Shown here: piece after piece, positions 1 to 59,690 of the stretch
Layout: each line of letters begins with the position of its first letter
Numbering within the stretch: position 1 is the first letter of the stretch
NCBI GenBank assembly: GCA_946699065.1
Contig: CAMPDV010000282.1
Coordinates: 186,001 to 250,000 of the forward strand
Source: Loxodes magnus
Taxonomy: Eukaryota; Ciliophora; Karyorelictea; Loxodida; Loxodidae
Length of the DNA stretch: 64,000 nucleotides
Direction: 5' to 3'
The notes under the pieces: model-generated
Database searches by the model: none
Told to the model about the DNA's origin: nothing
Seen by the model: only the letters and a program-made list of their open reading frames with translations
Translations under genes and position numbers: made by a program

Positions 1-790
1 CTAATTTTGGAATTAGTTAGTTAAATCATTTTATGCCTTTTAAATCTAATCCTATAAATAATTCTTTTCTAATTGTACTTGCTAGATTTAGTTTGGAAAA
101 TCTTGCTCTTTTAATTTTACTTCTTCCTAAAAAATAAGTTAAAAGTTGTTTCTTTATTCTGTGTCATTAATTATTTCTTCTTAGTATTTTTATCTTAACT
201 AGTACATTATTCCTGGCTTTTTTTACGAATAATACTACTCTACTTTTTCAGGATTATGCTTATATATTCAAGCTATTTTATGTAATACTTATTCTTCTTG
301 ACTGCTTATTTTATTTTCCTTCGAAAAAGAAGTCTAACCTTTATTAAAATATGCAAGCAACTGTAAACACTTAGATTATAACTCGTCCATTTGTTTCATT
401 CGCTAGCACATTTATTCCATTTCATTTAGACTTTATCTGTACTTTTCTTCTTTTGTATTCATTTTTAAGTTTCTATCTAATACATCTAGATCTCATTGAA
501 TCTACTTTAATAAGTCGTAATCCTATCTAGGTTCTAATATTTTAGCTATCTTTTCTCTTTCTCTAAACTCCTAAATTATTTGAGTAGTTTTTTAAGTTTT
601 TTCATCGAATTCAGCAAGATCTGACCTGGTTATTTTACTAAGTTCATTTAAGTTTTCCGTAATCCAATTAATGATATTCAAACACCGCTATGATACCAGG
701 TCATAGAGAGACTACTAGATATCTGGCTGTTAGCATAGCTCAATAGTTTTGGTTAGCTATTATATCCCTTAATAAAATTGATTAGTCTCA
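1..790 (-). CDS. FW-domain/CaaX family gene, 5' part only (copy 0), cut by window edge
   Basis: On the minus strand this matches the first half of the FW-domain gene described at 8884-11311, and matches the 26.04-26.86 kb part of the palindromic copy almost base for base from about 50 to 835. It holds the N-terminal helical region only; the FW domains would lie left of the window. Its 5' end is the variant also seen at 26.82 kb: it lacks the ATG that the copies at 8884 and 36879 share, so either translation starts elsewhere or this end is broken. Positions 1-50 diverge from the other copies. Whether the gene is functional cannot be judged. Confidence 0.5.
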
Positions 791-8883: not shown

Positions 8884-11311
8884 ATGCTTAACAAAGCTAA
8901 TAAATTTGACTATGGGATATAATAGCTAACCAAAACTATTGAGTTATGCTAACAGTCAGATATCTAGTATTCTCTCTATGGCCTAGTATCATAGCGGTGC
9001 TAGAATATCATCAATTGGATTACGGAAAACTTAAATGAACTTAGTAAAATAACCAGGTCAGATCTTGCTGAATTCGATGAAAAAACTTAAAAAACTACTC
9101 AAATAATTTAGGAGTTTAGAGAAAGAGAAAAGATAGCTAGAATATTAGAACCTAGATAGGATTACGACTTATTAAAGTAGATTCAATGAGATCTAGATGT
9201 ATTAGATAGAAACTTAAAAATGAATACAAAAGAAGAAAAGTACAGATAAAGTCTAAATGAAATGGAATAAATGTGCTAGCGAATGAAACAAATGGACGAG
9301 TTATAATCTAAGTGTTTACAGTTGCTTGCATATTTTAATAAAGGTTAGGCTTCTTTTTCGAAGGAAAATAAAATAAGCAGTCAAGAAGAATAAGTTGCGC
9401 ATAAAATAGCTTGGATATATAAGCATAATCCTGAAAAAGTAGAGTAGCATTATTTGTAAAGAAAGCCAGGAATAATGTACTAGTTAAGATAAAAATACTA
9501 AGAAGAAATAATTAATGACACAGAATAAAGAAACAACTTTTAACTTATTTTTTAGCAGGAAGTAAAATTAAAAGAGCAAGATTTTCAAACTAAATCTAGC
9601 AAGTACAATTAGAAAAGAATTATTTATAAGATTAAAAATTTTAAAACTGGTAAGAGATTGTTCGTAAGTTTTACCTATTATTTTAGCATAAAAAACTGAG
9701 GGAATGAAAATGAAAATTGATAGTAACCAAGAAGAAATAATTAATGAAACAGAATAAAGAAACAACTTTTAACTTGTTTTTTAAAAAGAAAATCAAATAC
9801 AAGAATAAGGCTTACCAAGCGAAGTCTTTCCAGTCTAGTAAACATAAAATTAATAATAAACTTAGGAGCTTTATAACTAGTAGTAAGCTTACTGTAAGTT
9901 TTTTATATTATATTAGTATAATAAACTGAGGAAATAAAACATGATTATGAATTAGAAGCCACAATAATTTAGAAGGGGAATTACATGCAAAACTTAACAC
10001 CATCTAATGTATAAAATTAATAACTTCAAGATAAACAGCAAATGAAAGGTAATTACGAAGCTAATCAATAATAGCAATACTAAGGATTCCATATACAAAG
10101 TTAAGAATAGTATGCTCCTTATTAATAAGATTAAATCTAATAGATAAAAGCTGATATTGCTAACTAGTACCAAAATTAGTTAGAAAATATGTAGCTAAGC
10201 TATGAAAATCAAATTTTTGAACTTACTAAAAGGTTGTAAGAGAAAGATGAAGAGTTAAGAAAGAGATAACAGCTATTCATCAATCTAAAAGAAAACGAAA
10301 AATATTAGAAACCATAAAAGGAGGAATAAAAGAGTGAATAAAGTTCAATATATGAAGTAAGTTTTTATGCAGGGATAATTAGAATGTGCTAAGAATAATT
10401 TAAGAGTATATAGTGGATAGAAAGCTGAACTAGAATTGTAAGTTTTATAAATTAGCTAAATTTAAAATATTGGTAAAGATAAATGAAGCAAGCCTATTAG
10501 TCTTTTTGAAACAGATAAGTAATAATCTTTTAAACTTGATAGAACATTAAATTCCTCCGAAGTTATCAAGAAAAAGGTATAAATTAGTTTTATTAGTTAT
10601 GAGGAAAATTCACTAGTACAGACATTTGTACTTAAGAAAAGCGATAAGTAAAATATTTCAAATGAATGCTAAGTCCACTTTGAAGTGATGCAATTACCTT
10701 AAGGCTCTATTAAGTTAAAATAAGAATCTAATTATTATTTAAATGAAGAAGTGGCTAAAATATAGTTAGAAGTATAAAATATTGGAAAAGAGTAATGACC
10801 ATAAAATATTTATATAGAAAGTCTAGATAATTTTACTTAAAAATGCTTTGTAGGAAATTTAAGGCCAGAATAAAGTAAAATAGTAGAAATAGAAATTATC
10901 ACAGAGAAAGATTCAGGAACTTACGAACATAAATTACAACTAGAAGTAGAAGGAAACCGCTTTGGAGAGATTTTGGCTTATTAATACACTGTTTATAATC
11001 CTTTAACTGAATAAGATTAGTAGTTAAGACAAAGTTACTGAGACTTCGTAAAAAATTTAGATGAAGAAAGTTTAAAATAGTTTAAATAGCTAAAAAAGAG
11101 AAGAGACATTGCCTGGTATTTAATATATTCTTAGAAAGATAGATTTTAGTAGATAAAGAAGGAAAATTTAGTTGAATCTATTTTAAGATAAAGCTCAAAT
11201 ATGACTTAAGAGGATTTGAAAAATGATTTATAAAATTTTTCACAAAGATAAGGTAAGACCAACTAAGTGCTGATAGTGAGAAAATCAGGATGTAACTGTG
11301 CGATTTTTTGA
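8884..11311 (+). CDS. NBR1-type FW-domain protein with C-terminal CaaX box (copy A)
   Basis: Read from ATG 8884 (MLNKANKFDYG) to TGA 11309-11311, with introns of about 37, 23, 16 and 18 nt removed, this gives about 777 residues in one frame. Residues 1-480 are helical, charged and Gln-rich (coiled coil). At about 490-580 and 585-665 lie two beta-sandwich repeats of the NBR1/ILRUN four-tryptophan (FW) type: NIGKDKW, then NIGKEQWP, LRPEQ, DSGTYEH and GNRFGEIL. The tail ends CNCAIF, a CaaX-type prenylation signal. FW domains in NBR1 bind cargo or partners; a membrane-anchored adaptor role is inference. The copy at 36879 shares the same start and stop. This one has a tandemly duplicated 229-bp module (9502 and 9731) that the other lacks. 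Trp of NIGKDKW and EQWP is TGA. Confidence 0.82.
9650..9686 (+). other. Probable intron 1 of FW gene copy A (37 nt)
   Basis: Splicing GTAAGAG...TTTTAG here joins the first 229-bp module to the second in frame. An inner GTAAG at 9664 would give a 23-nt intron as in the second module, but then the frame is lost, so the 37-nt form is preferred. Confidence 0.5.
9894..9916 (+). other. Intron 2 of FW gene copy A (23 nt)
   Basis: GTAAG...TAG of 23 nt. Removing it restores the frame into the ELEATI segment. A 23-nt intron lies at the equivalent place in the copy at 36879 (37660-37682) with a different internal sequence. Confidence 0.75.
10357..10372 (+). other. Intron 3 of FW gene copy A (16 nt)
   Basis: GTAAGTTTTTATGCAG. 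Removal, together with the next intron, joins the coiled-coil segment to the FW domains in one frame. The equivalent intron at 38114-38129 differs by one base. Confidence 0.8.
10438..10455 (+). other. Intron 4 of FW gene copy A (18 nt)
   Basis: GTAAGTTTTATAAATTAG, identical in the copy at 38195-38212. It splits a Phe or Lys codon and its removal leads directly into the first FW repeat. Confidence 0.8.
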
Positions 11312-24413: not shown

Positions 24414-26850
24414 TCAAAAAATCGCACAGTTACATCCTGATTTTCTCACTATCAGCACTTAGTTGGTCTTACCTTATATTTGTGAAAATTTTTATAAATC
24501 ATTTTTCAAATCCTATTAAGTCATATTTGAACTTTATCTTAAAATAGATTCAACTAAATTTTCCTTCTTTATCTACTAAAATCTATCTTTCTAAGAATAT
24601 ATCAAATACCAGGCAATGTCTCTTCTCTTTTTTAGCTATTTAAACTATTTTAAACTTTCTTCATCTAAATTTTTTACGAAGTCTCAGTAACTTTGTCTTA
24701 ACTACTAATCTTATTCAGTTAAAGGATTATAAACAGTGTATTAATAAGCCAGAATCTCTCCAAAGCGGTTTCCTTCTACTTCTAGTTGTAATTTATGTTC
24801 GTAAGTTCCTGAATCTTTCTCTGTGATAATTTCTATTTCTACTATTTTACTTTACTCTGGATTTAAATTTCCTACAAAGCATTTTTAAGTAAAATTATCT
24901 AGACTTTCTATATAAATATTTTATGGTCATTACTCTTTTCCAATATTTTATACTTCTAACTATATTTTAGCCACTTCTTCATTTAAATAATAATTAGATT
25001 CTTATTTTAACTTAATAGAGCCTTAAATTAATTACATCACTTCAAAGTGGACTTAGCATTCATTTGAAATATTTTACTTATCGCTTTTCTTAAGTACAAA
25101 TGTCTGTACTAGTGAATTTTCCTCATAACTAATAAAACTAATTTATACCTTTTTCTTGATAACTTCGGAGGAATTTAATGTTCTATCAAGTTTAAAAGAC
25201 TATTACTTATCTATTTCAAAAAGACTAACAGGCTTGCTTCATTTATCTTTACCAATATTTTAAATTTAGCTAATTTATAAAACTTACAATTCTAGTTCAG
25301 CTTTCTATCCACTATATACTCTTAAATTATTCTTAGCACATTCTAATTATCCCTGCATAAAAACTTACTTCATATATTGAACTTTATTCACTCTTTTATT
25401 CCTCCTTTTATGGTTTCTAATATTTTTCGTTTTCTTTTAGATTGATGAATAACTGTTATCTCTTTCTTAACTCTTCATCTTTCTCTTAAAACCTTTTAGT
25501 AAGTTCAAAAATTTGATTTTCGTAGCTTAGCTTCATATTTTCTAACTAATTTTGGTATTAGTTAGCAATATCAGCTTTTATTTATTAGATTTAATCTTAT
25601 TAATAATTATTATTTTGAGGAGCATACTGTTCTTATATAGGGAATCCTTAGTATTGCTATTATTGATTAGCTTCGTAATTACCTTTCATTTACTGTTTAT
25701 TTTGAAGTTATTAATTTTATACATTAGATGGTGTTAAGTTTTGCATGTAATTCCCCTTCTAAATTATTGTGGCTTCTAATTCATAATCATGTTTTATTTC
25801 CTCAGTTTATTATACTGATATAATATAAAAAACTTACAGTAAGCTTACTACTAGTTATAAAGCTCCTAAGTTTATTATTAATTTTATGTTTACTAGACTG
25901 GAAAGACTTCGCTTGGTAAGTCTTATTCTTGTATTTGATTTTCTTTTTAAAAAACAAGTTAAAAGTTGTTTCTTTATTCTGTTTCATTAATTATTTCTTC
26001 TTGGTTACTATCAATTTTCATTTTCATTCCCTCAGTTTTTTATGCTAAAATAATAGGTAAAACTTACGAACAATCTCTTACCAGTTTTAAAATTTTTAAT
26101 CTTATAAATAATTCTTTTCTAATTGTACTTGCTAGATTTAGTTTGGAAAATCTTGCTCTTTTAATTTTACTTCTTGTTAAAAAATAAGTTAAAAGTTGTT
26201 TCTTTATTCTGTGTCATTAATTATTTCTTCTTAGTATTTTTATCTTAACTAGTACATTATTCCTGGCTTTCTTTACAAATAATGTTACTCTACTTTTTCA
26301 GGATTATGCTTATATATCCAAGCTATTTTATGCACAACTTATTCTTCTTGACTGCTTATTTTATTTTCCTTCGAAAAAGAGTCCTAACCTTTATTAAAAT
26401 ATGCAAGCAACTGCAAACACTTAGATTATAACTCGTCCATTTGTTTCATTCGCTAGCACATTTATTCCATTTCATCTTGGCTTTATCTGTACTTTTAATC
26501 TTTTGTATCCCTTTTTAAGTTTCTATCTAATACATCTAGATCTCATTGAATCTACTTTAATAAGTCGTAATCCTCTCTAGGTTCTAATATTCTAGCTATC
26601 TTTTCTCTTTCTCTAAACTTCTAAATTATTTGAGTAGTTTTTTAAGTTTTTTCATTGAAATCAGCAAGATCTGACCTGGTTATTTTACTAAGTTCATTTA
26701 AGTTTTCCGTAATCCAATTGATGATATTCTAACACCGCTATGATACCAGGTCATAGAGAGAATACTTTATATCTGGCTGTTAGCATAGCTATATAGTTTT
26801 GGCTAGCTATTATATCCCTTAATAAAATTGATTAGTCTCACTAGGTTTTT
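24414..26850 (-). CDS. FW-domain/CaaX protein, palindromic copy (copy B)
   Basis: Mirror of the gene at 8884-11311, with the same stop TGA (24414-24416), the CAIF end, the two FW repeats, the TGA-encoded Trp of the WP motif (24927-24929), both N-terminal modules and the tiny introns. The 5' end differs: the ATG used by the copies at 8884 and 36879 is missing, and the sequence matches the 1-0.8 kb fragment instead (an in-frame 9-nt insertion and altered bases upstream). Either another start is used or this copy is 5'-defective. I did not verify every codon. Confidence 0.65.
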
Positions 26851-30399: not shown

Positions 30400-31265
30400 A
30401 TATTTCAAATTAGTAGTTATCTATGAATAAGCTTCAGATGATTCTTGATGATTCTTGATGATTAGTTACTTAAGCCTGAAAGCGATAGAGTTAAAAACAA
30501 GTAGTCATAAATTTGAGCATCAGGTAATGCTTAAAGAAGATATGAATAACTAAGACTAAAAAAGTTAATTAAGAATATTAATAAAAAAGTATAATGCCCA
30601 AGATATTAGTATAGCAGAAGATATTAAGGAACTCTTAATTAATTGTCAAAAGAGTTTTTTCATATTTACTTGAAGTTAATTAAGCAGTTGTATGAAATTT
30701 CGCTATCAAATAGTTTTAGAATATTTAGCAGATTTAGAGTTAAAAAGCTTTTACAATCTTCATTTGAGAATACAGCAAATTTCATTTATAAAGACTAAAA
30801 TTAACAGCTAGAAAATAAAGAACATTAGAACAATAATAATGTAATCCTTTCACTTCTTTTGTAGCATTCCAATCTTGTACTTAAAATAAGAATAAACGGA
30901 GATTAAAAAGCATGTAAATAGTATCTATTAAGAAGTAAAAAATGATAGATAGATACTTATGAAAGTAACTAGCACTATATGCTCACATCTTATTTAAAGC
31001 TTTTATGCAAAATAATAATTTACAGCAGAATATGATATTCAGAAAAATTGTAATGCATACTAGTGATTTTACTAAGAGATTATTGCTATACAATCTATCT
31101 ATATCATAATATTATTATGCTTTATAGAAGAAAAACATTATTTAGTCAATGTATCTTAGGATTAGAGAGTCAAACAGATTTTTGTCATGAGAACTTTGTT
31201 AGGTGAGAAGAAAACTAAGAAAGAATCATATTATTTATGATTATACTAAGTTATTTACTAAATTA
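30400..31265 (+). pseudogene. Paralogue family P, copy 2, joined to FW fragment
   Basis: Sequence up to about 31265 aligns with 35.73-36.6 kb and with the minus strand at 1.15-1.6 kb, including a YKVSLEYQE-like segment and a stretch before TTATTTACTAAAT. It then switches abruptly into the C-terminal part of an FW-domain gene. Reading frames are broken relative to the 36 kb copy, so this looks like a truncated duplicate. Confidence 0.4.
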
Positions 31266-31684
31266 GAAAAAGTAGCAGAGAAAGATTCAGGAAAGTATTA
31301 GCATTTATTACAACTTGAAGTAGATGGAAATCTTATTTGAGAGATTTTAACTTATTAGTACATTTCTTATAATCCTATAACTAAATAAGATTAGTAGTTA
31401 AGACAAGTTACTTAGATTTCATAAACAACTTAGATCAAGAGTGTTTAAAATAGTTTAAATAGCTGGAAAGGAGAAGAGATATTGCCTGATATTTTAATTG
31501 CAAAAAGAAAGACCAATTTAAGAAGGTAAAGATGGAAAATTTAGTTAAATCTATCCTAAGATAAAATTAAAATATGACTTAATAGGATTTGAAACAAGAT
31601 TTATAATACATTTCACCAAGATAAATCTTGATAAGCTATATAAAGGTAGTGAGTAAATCAGGTTGCAACTGCTATATTTTATGA
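31266..31684 (+). pseudogene. FW-domain gene fragment, frameshifted (copy D)
   Basis: It begins inside the second FW repeat (EKDSGKYQH) and runs to TGA 31682-31684 after CNCYIL, a CaaX-type end. A single-base deletion after the LRQ codons shifts the frame relative to the other copies, and the conserved FGEIL Gly is changed (GGA to TGA). The DIAW tryptophan is TGA here. Lacking the N-terminus and the first FW repeat, this is a 5'-truncated pseudogene. Confidence 0.75.
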
Positions 31685-36878: not shown

Positions 36879-39065
36879 ATGCTTAACAAACCTAATCAAT
36901 TTTATTAAGGGATATAATAGCTAACCAAAACTATATAGCTATGCTAACAGCCAGATATCAAGTATTCTCTCTATGGCCTAGTATCATAGCGATGCGAGAA
37001 TATCATCAGTTGGATTATGTAAAACTTAAATGAACTTAGTAAAATAACCAGGTCAGATCTTGCTGAATTCGATGAAAAAACTTAAAAAATGACTCAAATA
37101 ATTTAGAAGTTTAGAGAAAGAGAAAAGATAGCTAGAATATTAGAACCTAGAGAGGATTACGACTTATTAAAGTAGATTCAATGAGATCTAGATGTATTAG
37201 ATAGAAACTTAAAAATGGATACAAAAGATTAAAAGTACAGATAAAGTCTAAATGAAATGGAATAAATGTTCTAGCGAATGAAGCAAATGGATGAGTTATA
37301 ATCTCAGCGTCTGCAGCTACTTGCATATTTTAATAAAGATTAGGCTTCTTTTTCGAAGAAAAATAAAATAAACAGTCAAGAAGAATAATTATTACATAAA
37401 ATAGCTTGGATATATAAGCATAATCCTGAAAAAGTAGAGTAGCATTATTTATAAAGAAAGCCAGGAATAAGGTACTAGTTAAGATAAAAATACTAAGAAG
37501 AAATAACTAATGACACAGAATAAAGAAACAACTTTTAACTTATTTTTTAGCAAGAAATCAAATTAAAAGAGCTAGATTTTCCAAACCAAATAAAGCAAGA
37601 TTTTTTAGCATAGAATTAATAATAAGCTTACCAGGTTTAAAATTAGTAATAGAGCTAAAGTAAGTATTTTTTATTATACTAGGATTAGGAACTGAGGAAA
37701 GAATAAGAGTTTCTAACTAAGAAGCTACGATAAATTAGGAAGAAATTTATAAGAAAAAATTAACACTATCTAATGCATAAAATAAATAGCTTCTTAATAA
37801 TCCTTGAATGGAAGACAATTATGAAGCTAATCAATAATAGTAATACTAAGGATTCCCTATATAAGAATAGTATGCTCCTCAAAATAATAATACTTATTAA
37901 GATTAAGTCTAGGAGATATAAGCTGATATAGCTAATTAATATCAAAGCTAATTATACAATTTGTAATAAAGTTATGAAAATCAAATTTAAAAACTTAGAA
38001 AAAGATTATAAGAGAAAGAGGAAGAGCTAAGAAAAAGTCAATTGCTGTTCAGCGAAAACAACTAAAAGTTAAAAAAGGAGGAATAAAAAAGTGAATTTAG
38101 TTCCATTTATGAAGTAAGTTTTTATACAGGGATGATTAGAGTGTACTTAAAATAATTTAAGAGTATATTATGGATAGCAAGTTGAGCTAGAATTGTAAGT
38201 TTTATAAATTAGTAAAATTTATAATAACGGAGAAGATAAATGGAATAAAAATGTTATTTTGTACTAAATTGAAACGCAATAGCTTTATAAAATAGAAAAA
38301 AAGCTAAATTCCTAAGAATCAACCATTAAAAAAATATAAATAATTATACTTGATCAAGTGAAATCTTTAGATTGTCTAACTTTCGTTCTCTAGAAAATTA
38401 ATTATTCAAATATTTCAAATGAATGCTAAGTCCACTTTGAAGTGATATAACTTCCATAAGGAATAATTACATTAAAATAATAATCTAATAATTACTTAAA
38501 TGAAGAAGTTGCTAAAATCTAGTTTGAAGCACAAAACACTGGAAAAGAGTAATGGCCATAAAACGCTTCAATAGAAAGTTTAGATAATTTTGCATAGAAA
38601 TGTCAAATAGGAGTTTTAAATCCGGAGTAAAGCAAAACAGTGGAATTAAAGATTGTAACAGAGAAAGATTCAGGAAAATATTAGCATAAATTCTAACTTG
38701 AAGCAGATGGAAACCGCTTTGGAGAGATTTTGACTTATTAGTACAGTGTTTATAATCCTTCAACAGAGTAAGATTAGCAGTTAAGATAAAATTACTAAGA
38801 TTTTATTTAAACCTAAAATGAAGAAAATATAAATTAGTTAGAAAAGCTAAAAAAGAGAAGAGATATTGCTTGATATTTCCATTATTCAAAAAAAGAAAAA
38901 TTTTAGAAAGTAAAATTGGAAAATTTAGTTGAATCTATCCTTAATTAAAGCTCAAATATGATATAATATAATTTGAAAAACGATTTATAAATTTCACCAA
39001 GACAAGCCTAGAAAAATTAAGTATAGATAGTGAAAAATTCAAAGCCATACTGCTAGATTTTTTGA
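36879..39065 (+). CDS. FW-domain/CaaX protein (copy C), complete
   Basis: ATG 36879 (MLNKPNQFYQG) to TGA 39063-39065, with introns of 23 nt (37660), 16 nt (38114) and 18 nt (38195) removed: 709 residues in one frame. It has the same architecture as the gene at 8884: a Gln-rich coiled coil, two NBR1-type FW repeats (NNGEDKW; then EQWP, LNPEQ, DSGKYQH, GNRFGEIL), a helical tail and the CaaX end CQIF. It has only one of the N-terminal modules that are tandem in copy A. Trp in NNGEDKW and EQWP is TGG where copy A has TGA; the DIAW Trp is TGA where copy A has TGG. This is the best evidence in the window for the code. Confidence 0.85.
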
Positions 39066-49028: not shown

Positions 49029-52000
49029 ATGGGAACTACCAGTTAGTAGGGAATTATAATTCCTTATGAAAAATTATAAAAGGTAAAACTATTAGGGTAA
49101 GGAAGCTTTGGAGTGGTATATGCTGGAAAATGGAATTAAGTTAATGATGTAGCGATAAAAGAATTCTATGAAGAGAATCTGACTTATAATGCTTAGATAG
49201 AGTTGGAGATGCAATTGCAAATAATGTCATAGATGAAGCATACGAACGTGGTTAGGCTATATGGATACTGTATTTCTCCAACAAGTTTGGTAATAGAGTT
49301 AATGCATCAATCTTTATCCAATTTGTTATATAGTAATGAAGAGATAAATTGAAATAAAAGGTATTAGATAACTTTAGATATAGTAGAAGGATTGAAATAC
49401 ATTCATGGAAAAGGGATAGTACATAGAGACCTGAAAAGTCCTAATGTTTTATTGGATAGAAACTAAAAAGCAAAAATATGCGACTTTGGCTTATCAAAAT
49501 AAAAATTAGTATCTAGATAAAAAATATTTTAGTAGGGAAGCAATTAATAAAAAGAATAATTATATTGAATGGCACCAGAATTATTTAGGACGAGACCGGA
49601 ATTCAGCTTTTAATCTGATATATATGCGTTGGGAATTATCATGTGAGAAATAGCTGAGAGAAGATTACATTATACGAAAGTGGTAGAAAACTTTGCTATG
49701 GAGGAAGTGAAGAGTGGAGAAGGAGAATAAATGTGCTCAAACTTTCCTTAAGAGTATAGAGAGTGTATATTGGAGTGTTTGAGAGATGAAGCTTAGTAGA
49801 GAATAAATTTGTAAGTTTTATAGAAAAAATTGTTAGAAGGAAAGTTAAATTTGGATATCTTTGAGCAAATAAAGAGTTTAACAAAAATATCTCATTAATA
49901 AGTCAAGAAAGAGAATCAAGAATAAATCGAGGTTTTCTCTATTTAAAAAGTAGAAGAAGAAATAAAGTATAAGAATGGTGATAGATGTAGGGGATAATGA
50001 TTATATGGAAAAAGATAAGGCAAAGGAGTTTATTATTACTAAAATGGAGACATTTACGAAGGAGATTGATAAGAAAACAAGATAACAGGATATGGAGTTT
50101 ATAAATACAGAGAAGGAGATAGATACGAAGGATAAAGAATAAATGGAAAAAAATAAGGCAAAGGAACATAATATTACTAAAATGGAGACATTTACGAAGG
50201 AGATTGATAAGAAAACAAGATAACAGGATATGGAGTTTATAAATACAGAGAAGGAGATAGATACGAAGGGTACTGATTAAATAGTAAGAGATAAGGTAAA
50301 GGAACATAATATTACTAAAATGGAGACATTTACGAAGGAGATTGATAAGAAAACTAGATAACAGGATATGGAGTTTTTAAATACAGAGAAGGAGATAGAT
50401 ACGAAGGGTACTGTTTAAATAGTGAGAGATAAGGTAAAGGAACATAATATTACTAAAATGGAGACATTTACGAAGGAGATTGATAAGAAAACTAGATAAC
50501 AGGATATGGAGTTTATAAATACAGAGAAGGAGATAGATACGAAGGGTACTGATTAAATAGTAAGAGATAAGGTAAAGGAACATAATATTACTAAAATGGA
50601 GACATTTACGAAGGAGATTGATAAGAAAACTAGATAACAGGATATGGAGTTTATAAATACAGAGAAGGAGATAGATACGAAGGGTACTGATTAAATAGTA
50701 AGAGATAAGGTAAAGGAACATAATATTACTAAAATGGAGACATTTACGAAGGAGATTGATAAGAAAACTAGATAACAGGATATGGAGTTTTTAAATACAG
50801 AGAAGGAGATAGATACGAAGGGTACTGATTAAATAGTAAGAGATAAGGTAAAGGAACATAATATTACTAAAATGGAGACATTTACGAAGGAGATTGATAA
50901 GAAAACTAGATAACAGGATATGGAGTTTTTAAATACAGAGAAGGAGATAGATACGAAGGGTACTGATTAAATAGTAAGAGATAAGGTAAAGGAACATAAT
51001 ATTACTAAAATGGAGACATTTACGAAGGAGATTGATAAGAAAACTAGATAACAGGATATGGCATTTTTAAATACTGAGAAGGAGATAGATACGAAGGGTA
51101 CTGATTAAATAGTAAGAGATAAGGTAAAGGAACATAATATTACTAAAATGGAGACATTTACGAAGGAGATTGATAAGAAAACTAGATAACAGGATATGGA
51201 GTTTTTAAATACAGAGAAGGAGATAGATACGAAGGGTACTGATTAAATAGTAAGAGATAAGGTAAAGGAACATAATATTACTAAAAGGGAGACATTTACG
51301 AAGGAGATTGATAAGAAAACTAGATAACAGGATATGGAGTTTATAAATACAGAGAAGGAGATAGATACGAAGGGTACTGATTAAATAGTAAGAGATAAGG
51401 TAAAGGAACATAATATTACTAAAATGGAGACATTTACGAAGGAGATTGATAAGAAAACTAGATAACAGGATATGGAGTTTTTAAATACAGAGAAGGAGAT
51501 AGATACGAAGGGTACTGATTAAATAGTAAGAGATAAGGTAAAGGAACATAATATTACTAAAATGGAGACATTTACGAAGGAGATTGATAAGAAAACTAGA
51601 TAACAGGATATGGCATTTTTAAATACTGAGAAGGAGATAGATACGAAGGGTACTGATTAAATAGTAAGAGATAAGGTAAAGGAACATAATATTACTAAAA
51701 TGGAGACATTTACGAAGGAGATTGATAAGAAAACTAGATAACAGGATATGGAGTTTTTAAATACAGAGAAGGAGATAGATACGAAGGGTACTGATTAAAT
51801 AGTAAGAGATAAGGTAAAGGAACATAATATTACTAAAATGGAGACATTTACGAAGGAAATTGATAAGAAAACTAGATAACAGGATATGGCATTTTTAAAT
51901 ACTGAGAAGGAGATAGATACGAAGGGTACTGATTAAATAGTAAGAGATAAGGTAAAGGAACATAATATTACTAAAATGGAGACATTTACGAAGGAGATTG

Positions 52001-55000
52001 ATAAGAAAACAAGATAACAGGATATGGAGTTTATAAATACAGAGAAGGAGATAGATACGAAGGGTACTGATTAAATAGTAAGAGATAAGGTAAAGGAACA
52101 TAATATTACTAAAATGGAGACATTTACGAAGGAGATTGATAAGAAAACTAGATAACAGGATATGGAGTTTATAAATACAGAGAAGGAGATAGATACGAAG
52201 GGTACTGATTAAATAGTAAGAGATAAGGTAAAGGAACATAATATTACTAAAATGGAGACATTTACGAAGGAGATTGATAAGAAAACTAGATAACAGGATA
52301 TGGAGTTTTTAAATACAGAGAAGGAGATAGATACGAAGGGTACTGATTAAATAGTAAGAGATAAGGTAAAGGAACATAATATTACTAAAATGGAGACATT
52401 TACGAAGGAGATTGATAAGAAAACTAGATAACAGGATATGGAGTTTTTAAATACAGAGAAGGAGATAGATACGAAGGGTACTGATTAAATAGTAAGAGAT
52501 AAGGTAAAGGAACATAATATTACTAAAAGGGAGACATTTACGAAGGAAATTGATAAGAAAACTAGATAACAGGATATGGCATTTTTAAATACTGAGAAGG
52601 AGATAGATACGAAGGGTACTGATTAAATAGTAAGAGATAAGGTAAAGGAACATAATATTACTAAAATGGAGACATTTACGAAGGAGATTGATAAGAAAAC
52701 TAGATAACAGGATATGGAGTTTATAAATACAGAGAAGGAGATAGATACGAAGGGTACTGATTAAATAGTAAGAGATAAGGTAAAGGAACATAATATTACT
52801 AAAATGGAGACATTTACGAAGGAGATTGATAAGAAAACTAGATAACAGGATATGGAGTTTTTAAATACAGAGAAGGAGATAGATACGAAGGGTACTGATT
52901 AAATAGTAAGAGATAAGGTAAAGGAACATAATATTACTAAAATGGAGACATTTACGAAGGAGATTGATAAGAAAACTAGATAACAGGATATGGAGTTTTT
53001 AAATACAGAGAAGGAGATAGATACGAAGGGTACTGATTAAATAGTAAGAGATAAGGTAAAGGAACATAATATTACTAAAATGGAGACATTTACGAAGGAG
53101 ATTGATAAGAAAACTAGATAACAGGATATGGAGTTTTTAAATACAGAGAAGGAGATAGATACGAAGGGTACTGATTAAATAGTAAGAGATAAGGTAAAGG
53201 AACATAATATTACTAAAATGGAGACATTTACGAAGGAGATTGATAAGAAAACTAGATAACAGGATATGGAGTTTTTAAATACAGAGAAGGAGATAGATAC
53301 GAAGGGTACTGATTAAATAGTAAGAGATAAGGTAAAGGAACATAATATTACTAAAAGGGAGACATTTACGAAGGAAATTGATAAGAAAACTAGATAACAG
53401 GATATGGCATTTTTAAATACTGAGAAGGAGATAGATACGAAGGGTACTGATTAAATAGTAAGAGATAAGGTAAAGGAACATAATATTACTAAAATGGAGA
53501 CATTTACGAAGGAGATTGATAAGAAAACTAGATAACAGGATATGGAGTTTATAAATACAGAGAAGGAGATAGATACGAAGGGTACTGATTAAATAGTAAG
53601 AGATAAGGTAAAGGAACATAATATTACTAAAATGGAGACATTTACGAAGGAGATTGATAAGAAAACTAGATAACAGGATATGGAGTTTTTAAATACAGAG
53701 AAGGAGATAGATACGAAGGGTACTGATTAAATAGTAAGAGATAAGGTAAAGGAACATAATATTACTAAAATGGAGACATTTACGAAGGAGATTGATAAGA
53801 AAACTAGATAACAGGATATGGAGTTTATAAATACAGAGAAGGAGATAGATACGAAGGGTACTGATTAAATAGTAAGAGATAAGGTAAAGGAACATAATAT
53901 TACTAAAATGGAGACATTTACGAAGGGATTGATAAGAAAACTAGAGGATATGGATTTTTAAATACAGAGAAGGAGATAGATACGAAGGGTACTGATTAAA
54001 TAGTAAGAGATAAGGTAAAGGAACATAATATTACTAAAATGGAGACATTTACGAAGGAGATTGATAAGAAAACTAGATAACAGGATATGGAGTTTTTAAA
54101 TACAGAGAAGGAGATAGATACGAAGGGTACTGATTAAATAGTAAGAGATAAGGTAAAGGAACATAATATTACTAAAATGGAGACATTTACGAAGGAGATT
54201 GATAAGAAAACTAGATAACAGGATATGGAGTTTATAAATACAGAGAAGGAGATAGATACGAAGGGTACTGATTAAATAGTAAGAGATAAGGTAAAGGAAC
54301 ATAATATTACTAAAATGGAGACATTTACGAAGGAGATTGATAAGAAAACTAGATAACAGGATATGGAGTTTTTAAATACAGAGAAGGAGATAGATACGAA
54401 GGGTACTGATTAAATAGTAAGAGATAAGGTAAAGGAACATAATATTACTAAAATGGAGACATTTACGAAGGAGATTGATAAGAAAACAAGATAACAGGAT
54501 ATGGAGTTTATAAATACAGAGAAGGAGATAGATACGAAGGGTACTGATTAAATAGTAAGAGATAAGGTAAAGGAACATAATATTACTAAAATGGAGACAT
54601 TTACGAAGGAGATTGATAAGAAAACTAGATAACAGGATATGGAGTTTATAAATACAGAGAAGGAGATAGATACGAAGGGTACTGATTAAATAGTAAGAGA
54701 TAAGGTAAAGGAACATAATATTACTAAAATGGAGACATTTACGAAGGAGATTGATAAGAAAACAAGATAACAGGATATGGAGTTTATAAATACAGAGAAG
54801 GAGATAGATACGAAGGGTACTGATTAAATAGTAAGAGATAAGGTAAAGGAACATAATATTACTAAAATGGAGACATTTACGAAGGAGATTGATAAGAAAA
54901 CTAGATAACAGGATATGGAGTTTTTAAATACATTTTTAAATAGAGAAGGAGATAGATACGAATACTGATTAAATAGTAAGAGATAAGGTAAAGGAACATA

Positions 55001-58000
55001 ATATTACTAAAATGGAGACATTTACGAAGGAGATTGATAAGAAAACAAGATAACAGGATATGGAGTTTATAAATACAGAGAAGGAGATAGATACGAAGGG
55101 TACTGATTAAATAGTAAGAGATAAGGTAAAGGAACATAATATTACTAAAATGGAGACATTTACGAAGGAGATTGATAAGAAAAAGATAACAGGATATGGA
55201 GTTTATAAATACAGAGAAGGAGATAGAACGAAGGGTACTGATTAAATAGTGAGAGATTAAAGGAACATAATATTACTAAAATGGAGACATTTACGAAGGA
55301 GATTGATAAGAAGACTAGAGAACATGATATGGAGTTGTATAAATACGCAGAGAAGGAGATAGATACGAAGGGTACTGTATTAAATAGTGAGAGATAAGGT
55401 AAAGGAACATAATATTACTAAAATGGAGACATTTACGAAGGAATTGATAAGAAGACTAGAGAACAGGATATGGAGTTTATAATTACAGAGAAGGAGATAG
55501 ATATGAAGGGTACTGATTAAATAGTAAGAGATAAGGTAAAGGAACATAATATTACTAAAATGGAGACATTTACGATAAGGAGGATTGATAAGAAAACTGA
55601 TTAAATAGTAAGAGATAAGGTAAAGATAACAGGATATGGAGTTTGGAGTTTTTAAATACAGAGAAGGAGATAGATACGAAGGGTACTGATTAAATAGTAA
55701 GAGATAAGGTAAAGGAACATAATATTACTAAAATGGAGACATTTACGAAGGAGATTGATAAGAAAACTAGATAACAGGATATGGAGTTTATAAATAAGAT
55801 AGATACGAAGGATAAAGATGGAAAAAAATAAGGAGATAGATACGAAGGGTACTGATTAAATAGTAAGAGATAAGGTAAAGGAACATAATATTACTAAAAT
55901 GGAGACATTTACGAAGGAGATAAGAAAACTAGATAACAGGATATGGAGTTTATAAATACAGAGAAGGAGATAGATACGAAGGATAGAATAAAAGTAAGAG
56001 ATAAGGTAAAGGAACATAATATTATAAAATGGAGACATTTACACTAGATAACAGGATATGGAGTAAATACAGAGAAGGAGATTGATACGAAGGGTACTGA
56101 TTAAATAATAAGAGATAAGGTAAAGGAACATAATATTACTAAAATGGAGACATTTACGAAGGAGATTGATAAGAAAACAAGATAACAGGATATGGAGTTT
56201 ATAAATACAGAGAAGGAGATAGATACGAAGGGTACTGATTAAATAGTAAGAGATAAGGTAAAGGAACATAATATTACTAAAATGGAGACATTTACGAAGG
56301 AGATTGATAAGAAAACTAGATAACAGGATGGAGTTTTTAAATACAGAGAAGGAGATAGATACGAAGGATAAAGAATAAAGAAAAAGATAAGGCAAAGGAA
56401 CATAATATTACTAAAATGGAGACATTTACGAAGGAGATTGATAAGAAGACTAGATAACAGGATATGGCAGTTGTAAATACGCAAGTGGAAATAGATATGA
56501 ATTGTAATTATTAAATAGTAAGAGATAAGGTAAAGGAACATAATATTACTAAAATGGAGACATTTACGAAGGAGATTGATAAGAAAACTAGATAACAGGA
56601 TATGGAGTTTATAAATACAGAGAAGGAGATAGATACGAAGGGTACTGATTAAATAGTAAGAGATAAGGTAAAGGAACATAATATTACTAAAATGGAGACA
56701 TTTACGAAGGAAATTGATAAGAAAACTAGATAACAGGATATGGAGTTTTTAAATACAGAGAAGGAGATAGATACGAAGGGTACTGATTAAATAGTAAGAG
56801 ATAAGGTAAAGGAACATAATATTACTAAAATGGAGACATTTACGAAGGAAATTTTAGATAAATACAGAGAAGGAGATAGATACGAAGGGTACTGATTAAA
56901 TAGTAAGAGATAAGGTAAAGGAACATAATATTACTAAAATGGAGACATTTACGAAGAGACATTTACGAAGGAGATTGATAAGAAAACTAGATAACAGGAT
57001 ATGGAGAAATACAGAGAAGGAGATTGATAAGAAAACAAGATAACAGGATATGGAGTTTTTAAATACAGAGAAGGAGATAGATACGAAGGGTACTGATTAA
57101 ATAGTGAGAGATAAGGTAAAGGAACATAATATTACTAAAATGGAGACATTTACGAAGGAGATTGATAAGAAAACAAGATAACAGGATATGGAGTTTATAA
57201 ATACAGAGAAGGAGATAGATACGAAGGGTACTGATTAAATAGTAAGAGATAAGGTAAAGGAACATAATATTACTAAAATGGAGACATTTACGAAGGAGAT
57301 TGATAAGAAAACAAGATAACAGGATATGGAGTTTTTAAATACAGAGAAGGAGATAGATACGAAGGGTACTGATTAAATAGTGAGAGATAAGGTAAAGGAA
57401 CATAATATTACTAAAATGGAGACATTTACGAAGGAGATTGATAAGAAAACAAGATAACAGGATATGGAGTTTATAAATACAGAGAAGGAGATAGATACGA
57501 AGGGTACTGATTAAATAGTAAGAGATAAGGTAAAGGAACATAATATTACTAAAATGGAGACATTTACGAAGGAGATTGATAAGAAAACTAGATAACAGGA
57601 TATGGAGTTTTTAAATACAGAGAAGGAGATAGATACGAAGGGTACTGATTAAATAGTAAGAGATAAGGTAAAGGAACATAATATTACTAAAATGGAGACA
57701 TTTACGAAGGAGATTGATAAGAAAACAAGATAACAGGATATGGAGTTTATAAATACAGAGAAGGAGATAGATACGAAGGGTACTGATTAAATAGTAAGAG
57801 ATAAGGCAAAGGAACATATTATTATTAAAATGGAGACATTTACGAAGGAGATTGATAAGAAGACTAGAGAACATGATATGGAGTTGTAAATTACGCAAGT
57901 GGAAATTGATATGAAGGGTAATTATTAAATAATAAGAGATAAGGTAAAGGAACATAATATTACTAAAATGGAGACATTTACGAAGGAAATTGATAAGAAG

Positions 58001-58797
58001 ACTAGAGAACAGGATATGGAGTTGTAAATTACGCAAGTGGAAATTGATATGAAGGGTAATTATTAAATAATAAGAGATAAGGTAAAGGAACATAATATTA
58101 CTAAAATGGAGACATTTACGAAGGAGATTGATAAGAAAACAAGATAACAGGATATGGAGTTTATAAATACAGAGAAGGAGATAGATACGAAGGGTACTGA
58201 TTAAATAGTAAGAGATAAGGTAAAGGAACATAATATTACTAAAATGGAGACATTTACGAAGGAGATTGATAAGAAAACAAGATAACAGGATATGGAGTTT
58301 ATAAATACAGAGAAGGAGATAGATACGAATGGTACTGATTAAATAGTAAGAGATAAGGTAAAGGAACATAATATTACTAAATCGGAGACATTTACGAAGG
58401 AGATTGATAAGAAAACAAGATAACAGGATTTGGAGTTTAAAAATGTGTAGATGGTACTATATATGAAGGGCAATGATTAAATGGTAAAAGGTAAGGCAAA
58501 GGAATTTATTATTAGAGTAATGGTGATATATACGAAGGAGATTGATAAGAAGACTAGATAACATGATTTGGAGTTTTAAATTACGCAAATGGAGATGGAT
58601 ACGAAGGGTAATGATTAAATAATAAAAAATAAGGCAAAGGAACATATTATTGCAATAATGGCGATATATATGAGGGAGATTGGGTAGAAGATAAAAGAAC
58701 AAGATAAGATGCATATTAATGTTTTAATGGCAAGTGTTAAATAGAAATTTAACAAAAGGGAACGCTAATAAAAGTATTAATTTAATAATAAATTTGA
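49029..58797 (+). CDS. TKL-type protein kinase with giant MORN-repeat tail
   Basis: ATG 49029. Residues about 15-290 form a kinase domain: glycine loop LLGQGSFGVVYAGKW, VAIK lysine, catalytic HRDLKSPNVLL, CDFGLSK, then YWMAPE and GIIMWEIAER, typical of tyrosine-kinase-like kinases. The Trp of YWMAPE and MWEIAE is TGA. After a short linker, MORN repeats (YEGDWQENK, YEGYWLNSK, GYGVYKYREGD) start at about residue 315 and continue to 58.74 kb. All catalytic residues are present, so activity is expected. MORN repeats commonly bind membranes or organise cytoskeletal assemblies. The frame is open from 49029 to about 53.92 kb; indels then change it, and the final block reads in another frame to a TGA at 58795. 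This is either assembly error in the repeats or real damage. Unbroken, it would be about 3,250 residues. Confidence 0.75.
53920..54960 (+). other. Frame-shifted stretch in the MORN array
   Basis: Three deletions (1, 5 and 1 nt) near 53925-53960 move the frame by 7 nt. An insertion of 10 and a deletion of 3 near 54930-54970 move it back by exactly 7. Between them the units are perfect but out of phase with the kinase. Confidence 0.7.
55160..57060 (+). other. Disordered part of the MORN array
   Basis: Unit spacing is irregular (131, 142, 137, 134, 109 and 201 bp, among others), with partial units, internal duplications and many small indels. The regular 138-bp period resumes at 57.06 kb in a different phase. 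This looks like consensus error in a repeat, or true decay. Confidence 0.7.
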
Positions 58798-58799
58798 AA

Positions 58800-59690
58800 A
58801 GAAAATAAATGCTTTTATCAAACAAAAGAAAAACAGTTTAATAATGCTTTTATATTAATAAAATTAAAAAATTAGCGTATAAAGATGTTTTTAGTTATAT
58901 ATTTTATTTAAGATGAAATTAAATTAATTTCTTATGATTTATTGAAGGAAATATTATTTTAATTAATATAGCAATTTTTATGATACTCAAGAAGAGAAAT
59001 TTTATATGTATAAAATGCAAAATTTTTTATATAGATAATTAGTTCAATGAGTAAGTAATTTTAATTAGCTTTTTTTAGTATTTAAAATGGATATGAAATG
59101 TGATAGTAAGAAATAAAATGAATATAAGATATTTTATATATATTTAGTAAATTATTAAAAGTTTAAGAGTTATAAGCAAGAAAAAGTTTGAAAGTAAAGT
59201 AAAACGGAAAGAGTTAAGAGTAGAAAGAGAAAAAGAAAGGAAAAGAGAAGAGAAGAGAGTGTGATCAGATTGGAGAAGCAATAAAAAGAAGAGTAAAAGA
59301 TTAGAAATTGCTAAAAAATATAAATTAAAAAATGAGAGATAAGAAATGAAAGAAAAATTGTAAACATTTTGTAAGTATTTTTGTTCAGCAATTAAAATGA
59401 TAAGGAAAAGTGAGATTGACTAAAAATTTATAAAAAGGAAATAATAATAAAGAATGATTCATATGATAGTGAGAAGGGAAATATGGAAGGATTAAAAAAA
59501 AGGAAAAAAGAATGAAAAGTGAAAAAGATTCGTAAAAAGTTATATACTTTATTAGAGCTTTATGTAATAAGAGAATTTTTGGATGATTAAGGATAGAGCG
59601 ATTGAATTAATACAAATAATTAAGCCGGCAGATAAAAATTGTGACTATTTTTAAGATCCAAAAGTTTTATAATAAATAATAAATTAATGT
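58800..59690. other. AT-rich, purine-biased interval, no gene seen
   Basis: The 3' flank of the kinase-MORN gene. From 59.15 to 59.55 kb the plus strand is strongly A/G-biased (many GAAAAG and AGAGAAG runs). No RNA or coding feature is recognised. Confidence 0.4.

What the first reader, a model, noticed from the sequence alone, without database searches (positions are those of the whole stretch)
36879..39065. TGA is both Trp and stop, shown by paralogue comparison inside the window
Aligned Trp codons: TGA at 10484 versus TGG at 38241; TGA at 10796 versus TGG at 38553; TGG at 11114 versus TGA at 38871 and at 31487. All lie in conserved FW-domain or tail positions. The same three genes end at an aligned TGA (11309, 39063, 31682). 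In the kinase, TGA also encodes the Trp of WMAPE and MWEI. This is direct internal evidence for an ambiguous, context-read TGA (code 27 style) with TAA/TAG as Gln.
Basis: partly seen in the sequence, partly recalled or inferred. Interest (0 to 1): 0.8.

Follow-up and report, generated by a model that had tools for sequence, protein, structure and literature searches.

The report
UGA read as Trp and stop
This stretch of a ciliate genome, almost certainly Loxodes magnus, uses the codon UGA both for the amino acid tryptophan and as the stop signal, a genetic code already published for this organism and its relatives.

Summary
In detail: all ten quoted codons are as stated. The window lies in a 705,730,643-base assembly, matching the 706-Mbp Loxodes magnus macronuclear assembly, for which NCBI table 27 (UGA = Trp or stop) is reported (PMC11441545).

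Tests made here agree:
- In 29 genomic paralogues three internal columns swap TGA and TGG (12/14, 12/15, 15/14). The stop column is TGA 25, TAA 3, TTG 1, TGG 0.
- Conservation collapses after the stop; in 24 of 29 copies a CaaX-like tail ends at an in-register TGA.
- A histone H4 tail pattern has 10 places: 9 before TGA (two read in full as H4), one before TAA that is not H4.
- At the MORN Trp site of a kinase-MORN gene, 108 of 121 codons are TGA, 1 TGG.
- Trp scores best in 3 of 5 profiles; two kinase profiles prefer Tyr.

The genome also has tRNA-Sec and thioredoxin reductases ending Gly-Cys-UGA-Gly-UGA before a SECIS-like hairpin: very probably a third meaning, as reported for the karyorelict Parduczia. 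Their stop UGAs lie about 100 nt before the hairpin's end, which questions a purely distance-based rule.

The parts
36879..39065 (+). FW-domain (NBR1-type Ig) paralogue family gene; internal TGA at 37182, 37805, 38133, 38871; terminal TGA 39063-39065
   Evidence: inferred introns 37660-37682 and 38114-38129 give one 2148-nt open frame
39063..39065 (+). terminal TGA directly after the CaaX-like tail YCQIF
   Evidence: TGA in 25 of 29 copies at this column (24 in register), TGG in 0 of 29; conservation collapses after it
38871..38873 (+). internal TGA = Trp; TGG in the 98%-identical copies L002 and L003
   Evidence: TGA 15, TGG 14 of 29
38241..38243 (+). TGG here, TGA in 12 of 29 copies
38553..38555 (+). 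FW-domain TGG here, TGA in 12 of 29 copies
8884..11311 (+). paralogue with TGA at 10484 and 10796, TGG at 11114, terminal TGA 11309
   Evidence: genome place C282:194884-197287
31261..31684 (+). partial paralogue, 3' part, TGA 31487 and terminal TGA 31682
   Evidence: C282:217261-217684
24438..26835 (-). further paralogue on the minus strand (L018)
   Evidence: C282:210438-212835
38..785 (-). 5' part of a further paralogue that runs off the window start (L027)
   Evidence: C282:186038-186785
49056..49955 (+). protein kinase domain; TGA at 49350, 49566 (WMAPE), 49644 (MWEI)
49956..58700 (+). MORN repeat array fused to the kinase, about 138-bp double units; at the MORN Trp site 108 of 121 pattern matches are TGA, 1 TGG, 12 other codons; frame breaks after about 53926

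Best explanation
The window is nuclear DNA of a karyorelict ciliate, almost certainly Loxodes magnus, which uses NCBI genetic code 27. UAA and UAG encode Gln. UGA encodes Trp inside genes and is the stop codon at gene ends. Shown here: the same codon has both uses in the same genes. Inferred mechanism: the tRNA-Trp genes read here have anticodon CCA and a weakened 4-bp anticodon stem, so they can misread UGA. They compete at UGA with an eRF1 that keeps its NIKS motif. Release wins close to the mRNA 3' end, presumably through poly(A)/PABP proximity, and the tRNA wins elsewhere. A SECIS hairpin very probably gives UGA a third meaning, selenocysteine, in thioredoxin reductase.
For: Codons confirmed. 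Paralogue columns over 29 copies, with at least 3, 2 and 4 changes between TGA and TGG on a tree built without those codons. L001 and its 98%-identical copies L002/L003 differ by TGA/TGG at 38871. Profile scores with TGA set to each of 20 residues: Trp best for PF07714 (180.5; Tyr 173.9) and MORN (52.5; Phe 49.5). For the FW copy Trp scores 28.0, the best of 9 others tried 18.9. MORN Trp site: 108 TGA, 1 TGG, 12 other codons of 121. GPx IFKWL: TGA in 1 copy, TGG in 2, Phe in 1. Stop: 0 of 29 TGG; C-x-I-F/L tail directly before an in-register TGA in 24 of 29; divergence rises right after it. H4 tail pattern: 9 of 10 places before TGA, two of these read in full as H4, the single TAA place not H4. 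tRNA-Trp(CCA) with an A.C top anticodon-stem pair in the two loci folded, L051 and L060. A UCA-type pattern of fixed spacing has 0 matches. Assembly size and code match PMC11441545. A 4-bp-stem tRNA-Trp already reported in Loxodes: passages of PMC13092985.
Against: Two of the five profiles over their cut-off prefer another residue: PF00069 Tyr 160.3 against Trp 157.4, and PF14531 Tyr 30.3, His 30.1, Phe 28.5 against Trp 26.4. Tyr at the WMAPE site of many kinases is my recalled explanation. 3 of 29 copies have TAA and 1 has TTG at the stop column; one of the 25 TGA (L007) is out of register with its upstream frame. Five other columns hold some TGA beside residues such as Phe, Gly or Gln. Upstream gap runs are multiples of three in only 14 of 35 cases (downstream 54 of 243), so that frame test is weak. 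Seven of the nine H4-pattern places before TGA were not read. 376 of the 476 tRNA-Trp pattern matches were not listed. No RNA or peptide was available. The organism's name is inferred from assembly size and traits; no record title was seen.
Confidence: 0.97

Rival explanations
1. Code 6 (UGA only stop): copies with internal TGA are pseudogenes.
For: Large, recently duplicated family in a repeat-rich genome; some copies are broken (L028 and L007).
Against: TGA sits on Trp sites and swaps with TGG in otherwise open frames; dN/dS is 0.21-0.59 in all 9 compared pairs not within L012-L014. Trp gives the best score in 3 of 5 profiles. 108 MORN Trp sites, a GPx copy and thioredoxin reductases carry in-frame TGA.
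Confidence: 0.01
2. UGA is only Trp and the aligned terminal TGA is chance; the real ends lie further downstream.
For: In L001 the next in-frame TGA after the shared one is 31 codons on.
Against: Sequence conservation stops at the TGA; CaaX-like tail right before it in 24 of 29; 9 of 10 H4-pattern places are followed by TGA and the tenth is not H4.
Confidence: 0.01
3. UAA can also terminate near the mRNA end (closer to code 28, Condylostoma) in addition to UGA.
For: 3 of 29 copies (L012-L014, one clade) carry TAA right after an intact CYIF tail; the next in-frame TGA is 52 codons on (L014), 192 (L013) or not found in the stretch held (L012). PMC11441545 reports UAA, like UGA, depleted in the last about 20 codons.
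Against: A single lineage and one inferred change; dN/dS among the three is 0.8-2.3 on few changes, so the copies may simply be decaying after stop loss. The one H4-pattern place before TAA is not H4.
Confidence: 0.15
4. The decision is made by local bases around UGA rather than by position.
For: Stop TGAs are followed by A or C only (14 and 11 of 25), and the next 60 nt are poorer in G+C (0.150 against 0.229).
Against: Sense TGAs are followed by A 21, T 15, C 14, G 5 of 55, so A and C occur in both classes. The copies are related, so these counts are not independent.
Confidence: 0.1

Closest known systems
NCBI genetic code 27 in Loxodes magnus (Seah et al. 2024, PMC11441545)
   Same: UGA = Trp or stop; short introns; assembly size 706 Mbp
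   Different: Nothing in the finding itself. The paralogue TGA/TGG test and the thioredoxin reductase and tRNA-Sec data are additions made here.
Parduczia sp. and Condylostoma magnum ambiguous codes, with 'codon triality' of UGA (Swart et al. 2016, PMC4967479)
   Same: UGA as Trp, stop and Sec; thioredoxin reductase with a Sec codon close to its SECIS (passages)
   Different: C. magnum is inferred there to stop at all three codons; in this window's genome only UGA is shown to stop.
4-bp anticodon-stem tRNA-Trp(CCA) (Kachale et al. 2023, recalled; described in passages of PMC13092985)
   Same: tRNA-Trp(CCA) with an unpaired top anticodon-stem position, and no match to a UCA pattern; that paper already lists Loxodes
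   Different: Here the mismatch is A.C, and the genes sit in long tandem arrays (pattern: 476 matches against 25 backward controls).

Membership tests
NCBI genetic code 27 | UGA encodes Trp within genes | tested here: met
   two kinase profiles (PF00069, PF14531) prefer Tyr
NCBI genetic code 27 | UGA is the stop codon | tested here: met
NCBI genetic code 27 | UAA and UAG encode Gln | tested here: inconclusive
   Sense use is plain (62 TAA and 31 TAG in one gene). Of 10 residues tried for both codons together Gln scores best, by a small margin (PF07714 181.4; Lys 180.3, Glu 177.1). TAA/TAG columns also show CAA/CAG, but AAA and GAA more often.
NCBI genetic code 27 | UGA is the only stop codon | tested here: inconclusive
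   H4 pattern: 9 of 10 places before TGA, the TAA place not H4; FW family: 3 of 29 TAA and 1 TTG at the stop column
NCBI genetic code 27 | Sense or stop is decided by distance to the poly(A) tail | not testable with these tools
   no RNA data
Selenoprotein thioredoxin reductase | C-terminal Gly-Cys-Sec-Gly with UGA at Sec | tested here: met
   4 of 4 copies read (of 5 over the family cut-off, of 10 matches) end GC-TGA-GGT-TGA; Sec itself not measured
Selenoprotein thioredoxin reductase | SECIS element in the 3' UTR | tested here: inconclusive
   For: hairpin after the stop in 4 of 4, energies reached by 0, 0, 1 and 3 of 200 single-base shuffles; GTGA aligned in 4 of 4. Against: my recalled GTGA..AA..GA expression matched the expected place in only 2 of 4 (L090, L091); Rfam cmscan of L090, the one copy scanned, gave only a chance S15 match at E 5; RNAalifold covariation is slight.
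Selenoprotein thioredoxin reductase | tRNA-Sec in the same genome | tested here: met
   3 of 52 matches are over the RF01852 cut-off (73.9, 70.5, 63.5 bits) and are tRNA-Sec(tca) by ARAGORN in flanks of 26-28% G+C; three of the weaker ones checked are tRNA-Ser
Prenylated CaaX protein (FW family C-terminus) | Cys-aliphatic-aliphatic-X at the very C-terminus | tested here: inconclusive
   tails CQIF, CAIF, CMIF, CLIF, CQIL, CYIL directly before TGA in 24 of 29 copies; motif recalled, prenylation not tested

The most novel reading that the evidence does not exclude
In this genome UGA has three meanings (Trp, Sec, stop), very probably within single thioredoxin reductase genes. The stop UGA of those mRNAs must lie about 100 nt or more upstream of the mRNA end, because the SECIS-like hairpin follows it. 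That is the zone where other UGAs are read as Trp, so distance to poly(A) cannot be the only cue. All four copies read share a tandem UGA-N6-UGA with variable spacer bases, which may be the back-up that secures termination there.
Probability: 0.4. Interest if true: 0.6.

Novelty: already known. Interest (0 to 1): 0.32.

Why it matters
Dual-meaning stop codons break the textbook rule of one codon, one meaning. This locus is a compact internal proof: gene copies swap TGA and TGG at Trp sites but, in the 29 copies examined, never at the stop. For Loxodes the code itself is in print. What could matter is the thioredoxin reductase case: Sec and stop UGAs six bases apart, far from the probable mRNA end, make a direct test of whether poly(A) distance alone explains termination.

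Tried and rejected
Rejected: code 6 with pseudogenes; UGA as Trp only; chance (see rivals). Glutathione peroxidase as a selenoprotein: all 4 matches have Cys at the site. The best PF03463 hit (C2) reads as pelota-like, not eRF1; of the two C196 hits the one read is eRF1 with NIKS intact (RAQNIKS) and FxCxxxF (motifs recalled). The TAA match among the 10 H4-pattern places is not H4; only C10 and C27 of the 9 TGA places were read in full. L031-L040 (10 loci) match only the 5' part of the family; a C-terminal profile gave no match in them or in L024. L024 matches the query only up to base 1010 and was left out of the 29. The 53 matches are a lower bound. ARAGORN was run on two of the 30 tRNA-Trp loci fetched. 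A SECIS search of the genome (RF00031) did not complete and was given up. The Peer Community Journal paper on karyorelict codes and the eLife critique on UGA as Trp were seen only as references, not read. Searches for selenocysteine or selenoprotein with Loxodes listed one 2015 review (PMC4695839), not read; karyorelict with selenocysteine listed five papers including PMC4967479.

Papers: PMC11441545: abstract, Results parts 1-2 of 3 and passages. PMC4967479: passages. PMC13092985: passages. Others: search listings only.

Full report
WHAT WAS CLAIMED AND CHECKED. The gene at 36879-39065 has two inferred short introns (23 and 16 nt) and then forms a single 2148-nt frame with four internal TGA, four TGG and a terminal TGA. 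Its C-terminal part carries the NBR1-type FW/Ig domain (PF16158, E 3.7e-9). The kinase TGAs are at 49566 and 49644, with a third at 49350.

WHERE IT COMES FROM. The window is contig C282, 186001-250000, of an assembly of 705,730,643 bases in 7843 contigs, 25% G+C. The published Loxodes magnus macronuclear assembly is 706 Mbp, its introns average 19.3 bp, and its code is NCBI table 27 (PMC11441545). The identification is an inference from these matches; no record title was visible.

PARALOGUE TEST, EXTENDED TO THE GENOME. BLAST finds 53 matching stretches, a lower bound. Thirty fuller loci (L001-L030) were taken, of which 29 match through the 3' part; L024 does not. In those 29, column 38241 is TGG 14, TGA 12, TGT 1, gap 2; column 38553 is TGG 15, TGA 12, gap 2; column 38871 is TGA 15, TGG 14. 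The stop column 39063 is TGA 25, TAA 3, TTG 1 and never TGG. One of the 25 (L007) is out of register with its upstream frame. On a tree built without the three Trp codons, at least 3, 2 and 4 changes are needed at them. L001 and its 98%-identical copies L002 and L003 differ by TGA/TGG at 38871. Five further columns hold a minority of TGA next to other residues, for example 38286 with TTT 18, TGA 6, TAT 3, and 38721 with GGA 24, GGG 3, TGA 2; these neither help nor harm the Trp reading much.

WHICH AMINO ACID. With TGA set in turn to each of the 20 residues in 49056-50231, Trp scores best for PF07714 (180.5 bits; Tyr 173.9) and MORN (52.5; Phe 49.5). PF00069 prefers Tyr (160.3) over Trp (157.4), and PF14531 prefers Tyr (30.3), His (30.1) and Phe (28.5) over Trp (26.4). 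In the FW copy at 10379-11308 Trp gives 28.0 bits and the best of nine others tried 18.9. So Trp is best in 3 of the 5 profiles. Over 49900-58800, three frames pooled because the array has frame breaks, the MORN Trp site is TGA in 108 of 121 pattern matches, TGG in 1 and another codon in 12. In glutathione peroxidase the IFKWL Trp is TGA in one copy, TGG in two and Phe in one. For TAA and TAG together Gln is best of ten residues tried, only slightly ahead of Lys (181.4 against 180.3).

WHICH STOP. Pairwise differences among eight representatives are 0.15-0.36 per codon position before 39063 and 0.30-0.48 after 39065. The same call's gap-length test is weak (14 of 35 upstream gap runs are multiples of three, 54 of 243 downstream). 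In 24 of 29 copies the residues just before an in-register TGA form a CaaX-like tail, C-x-I-F or C-x-I-L; such boxes are known, from recall, to work only at the exact C-terminus. A histone H4 tail pattern followed by TRR has 10 places and no backward-control match: nine end in TGA and one in TAA. The TAA place is not H4; two of the nine were read in full as H4 and seven were not read.

MECHANISM. The tRNA-Trp genes in the two loci folded have anticodon CCA and an A.C mismatch at the top of the anticodon stem. The tRNA-Trp pattern has 476 matches against 25 backward controls; the 100 listed are identical and CCA, the rest were not seen. A UCA version of the pattern, with fixed spacing, has none. 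A 4-bp-stem tRNA-Trp in Loxodes is already reported (passages of PMC13092985). The eRF1 N-domain read keeps NIKS (motif recalled). The base after TGA does not separate sense (A 21, T 15, C 14, G 5 of 55) from stop (A 14, C 11 of 25), though the 60 nt after stops are poorer in G+C (0.150 against 0.229). This fits, but does not prove, the published model in which nearness to poly(A) favours release.

A THIRD MEANING. The genome holds three tRNA-Sec genes over the family cut-off in AT-rich surroundings. Thioredoxin reductase has ten matches, five over the cut-off with 3-5 in-frame TGA each. Four of those five were read at the 3' end only, and all four end Gly-Cys-TGA-Gly-TGA, then TGA again after six variable bases. 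The TGAs further upstream in these genes, presumably Trp, were counted but not read. A hairpin follows whose energy is reached by 0, 0, 1 and 3 of 200 single-base shuffles; its last paired base lies 96-106 nt after the stop. GTGA is aligned in 4 of 4. Against a firm SECIS call: my recalled core expression matched the expected place in only 2 of 4, Rfam did not report SECIS in the one copy scanned, and covariation is slight. The Sec reading therefore rests mainly on the GCUG ending in four copies, the tRNA-Sec genes and the hairpin. UGA as Trp, stop and Sec is already described for C. magnum and the karyorelict Parduczia (passages of PMC4967479). For Loxodes, searches listed only one 2015 review, unread. 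If the hairpin is in the mRNA, these stop UGAs lie about 100 nt or more from its end, while the published 3' UTR has mean 53 and median 41 bp. That is the open point worth testing.

UNEXPLAINED. Three copies (L012-L014, one clade) have TAA directly after an intact CYIF tail. Either they lost their stop and are decaying, or UAA can still end translation near the mRNA end.

VERDICT. The added value is the clean internal test and the selenoprotein case.

Noticed in passing
window 49056-58700: Kinase fused to a very long MORN array with TGA at most MORN Trp sites (108 of 121); the frame breaks several times after about 53926, which may be assembly error or decay.
   Followed up: partly
G000:C67:482323-491201 and C148:155464-169421: Long tandem arrays of tRNA-Trp(CCA) genes (about 187- and 241-base spacing); 476 pattern matches genome-wide, 100 listed.
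   Followed up: partly
L090-L093 (C202, C1, C42, C332): Thioredoxin reductase ends GC-TGA-GGT-TGA-N6-TGA in 4 of 4 copies read, followed by a SECIS-like hairpin.
   Followed up: yes
L012, L013, L014: TAA instead of TGA at the stop column after an intact CaaX-like tail.
   Followed up: partly
G000:C282, C180, C1445: The FW family lies in repeated, partly inverted clusters on these contigs, with groups of copies 96-99% identical, suggesting recent segmental duplication or haplotypes.
   Followed up: no
L044, L047, L049; C1173:21361-28060: Below-cut-off matches of the tRNA-Sec search: the three checked are tRNA-Ser(UGA); matches of the same score repeat every 1655 bases on C1173.
   Followed up: no
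window 36879-39065 family C-terminus: Basic stretch plus CxCxI[FL]-like end in many copies suggests a prenylated, possibly palmitoylated, membrane-bound FW protein.
   Followed up: no
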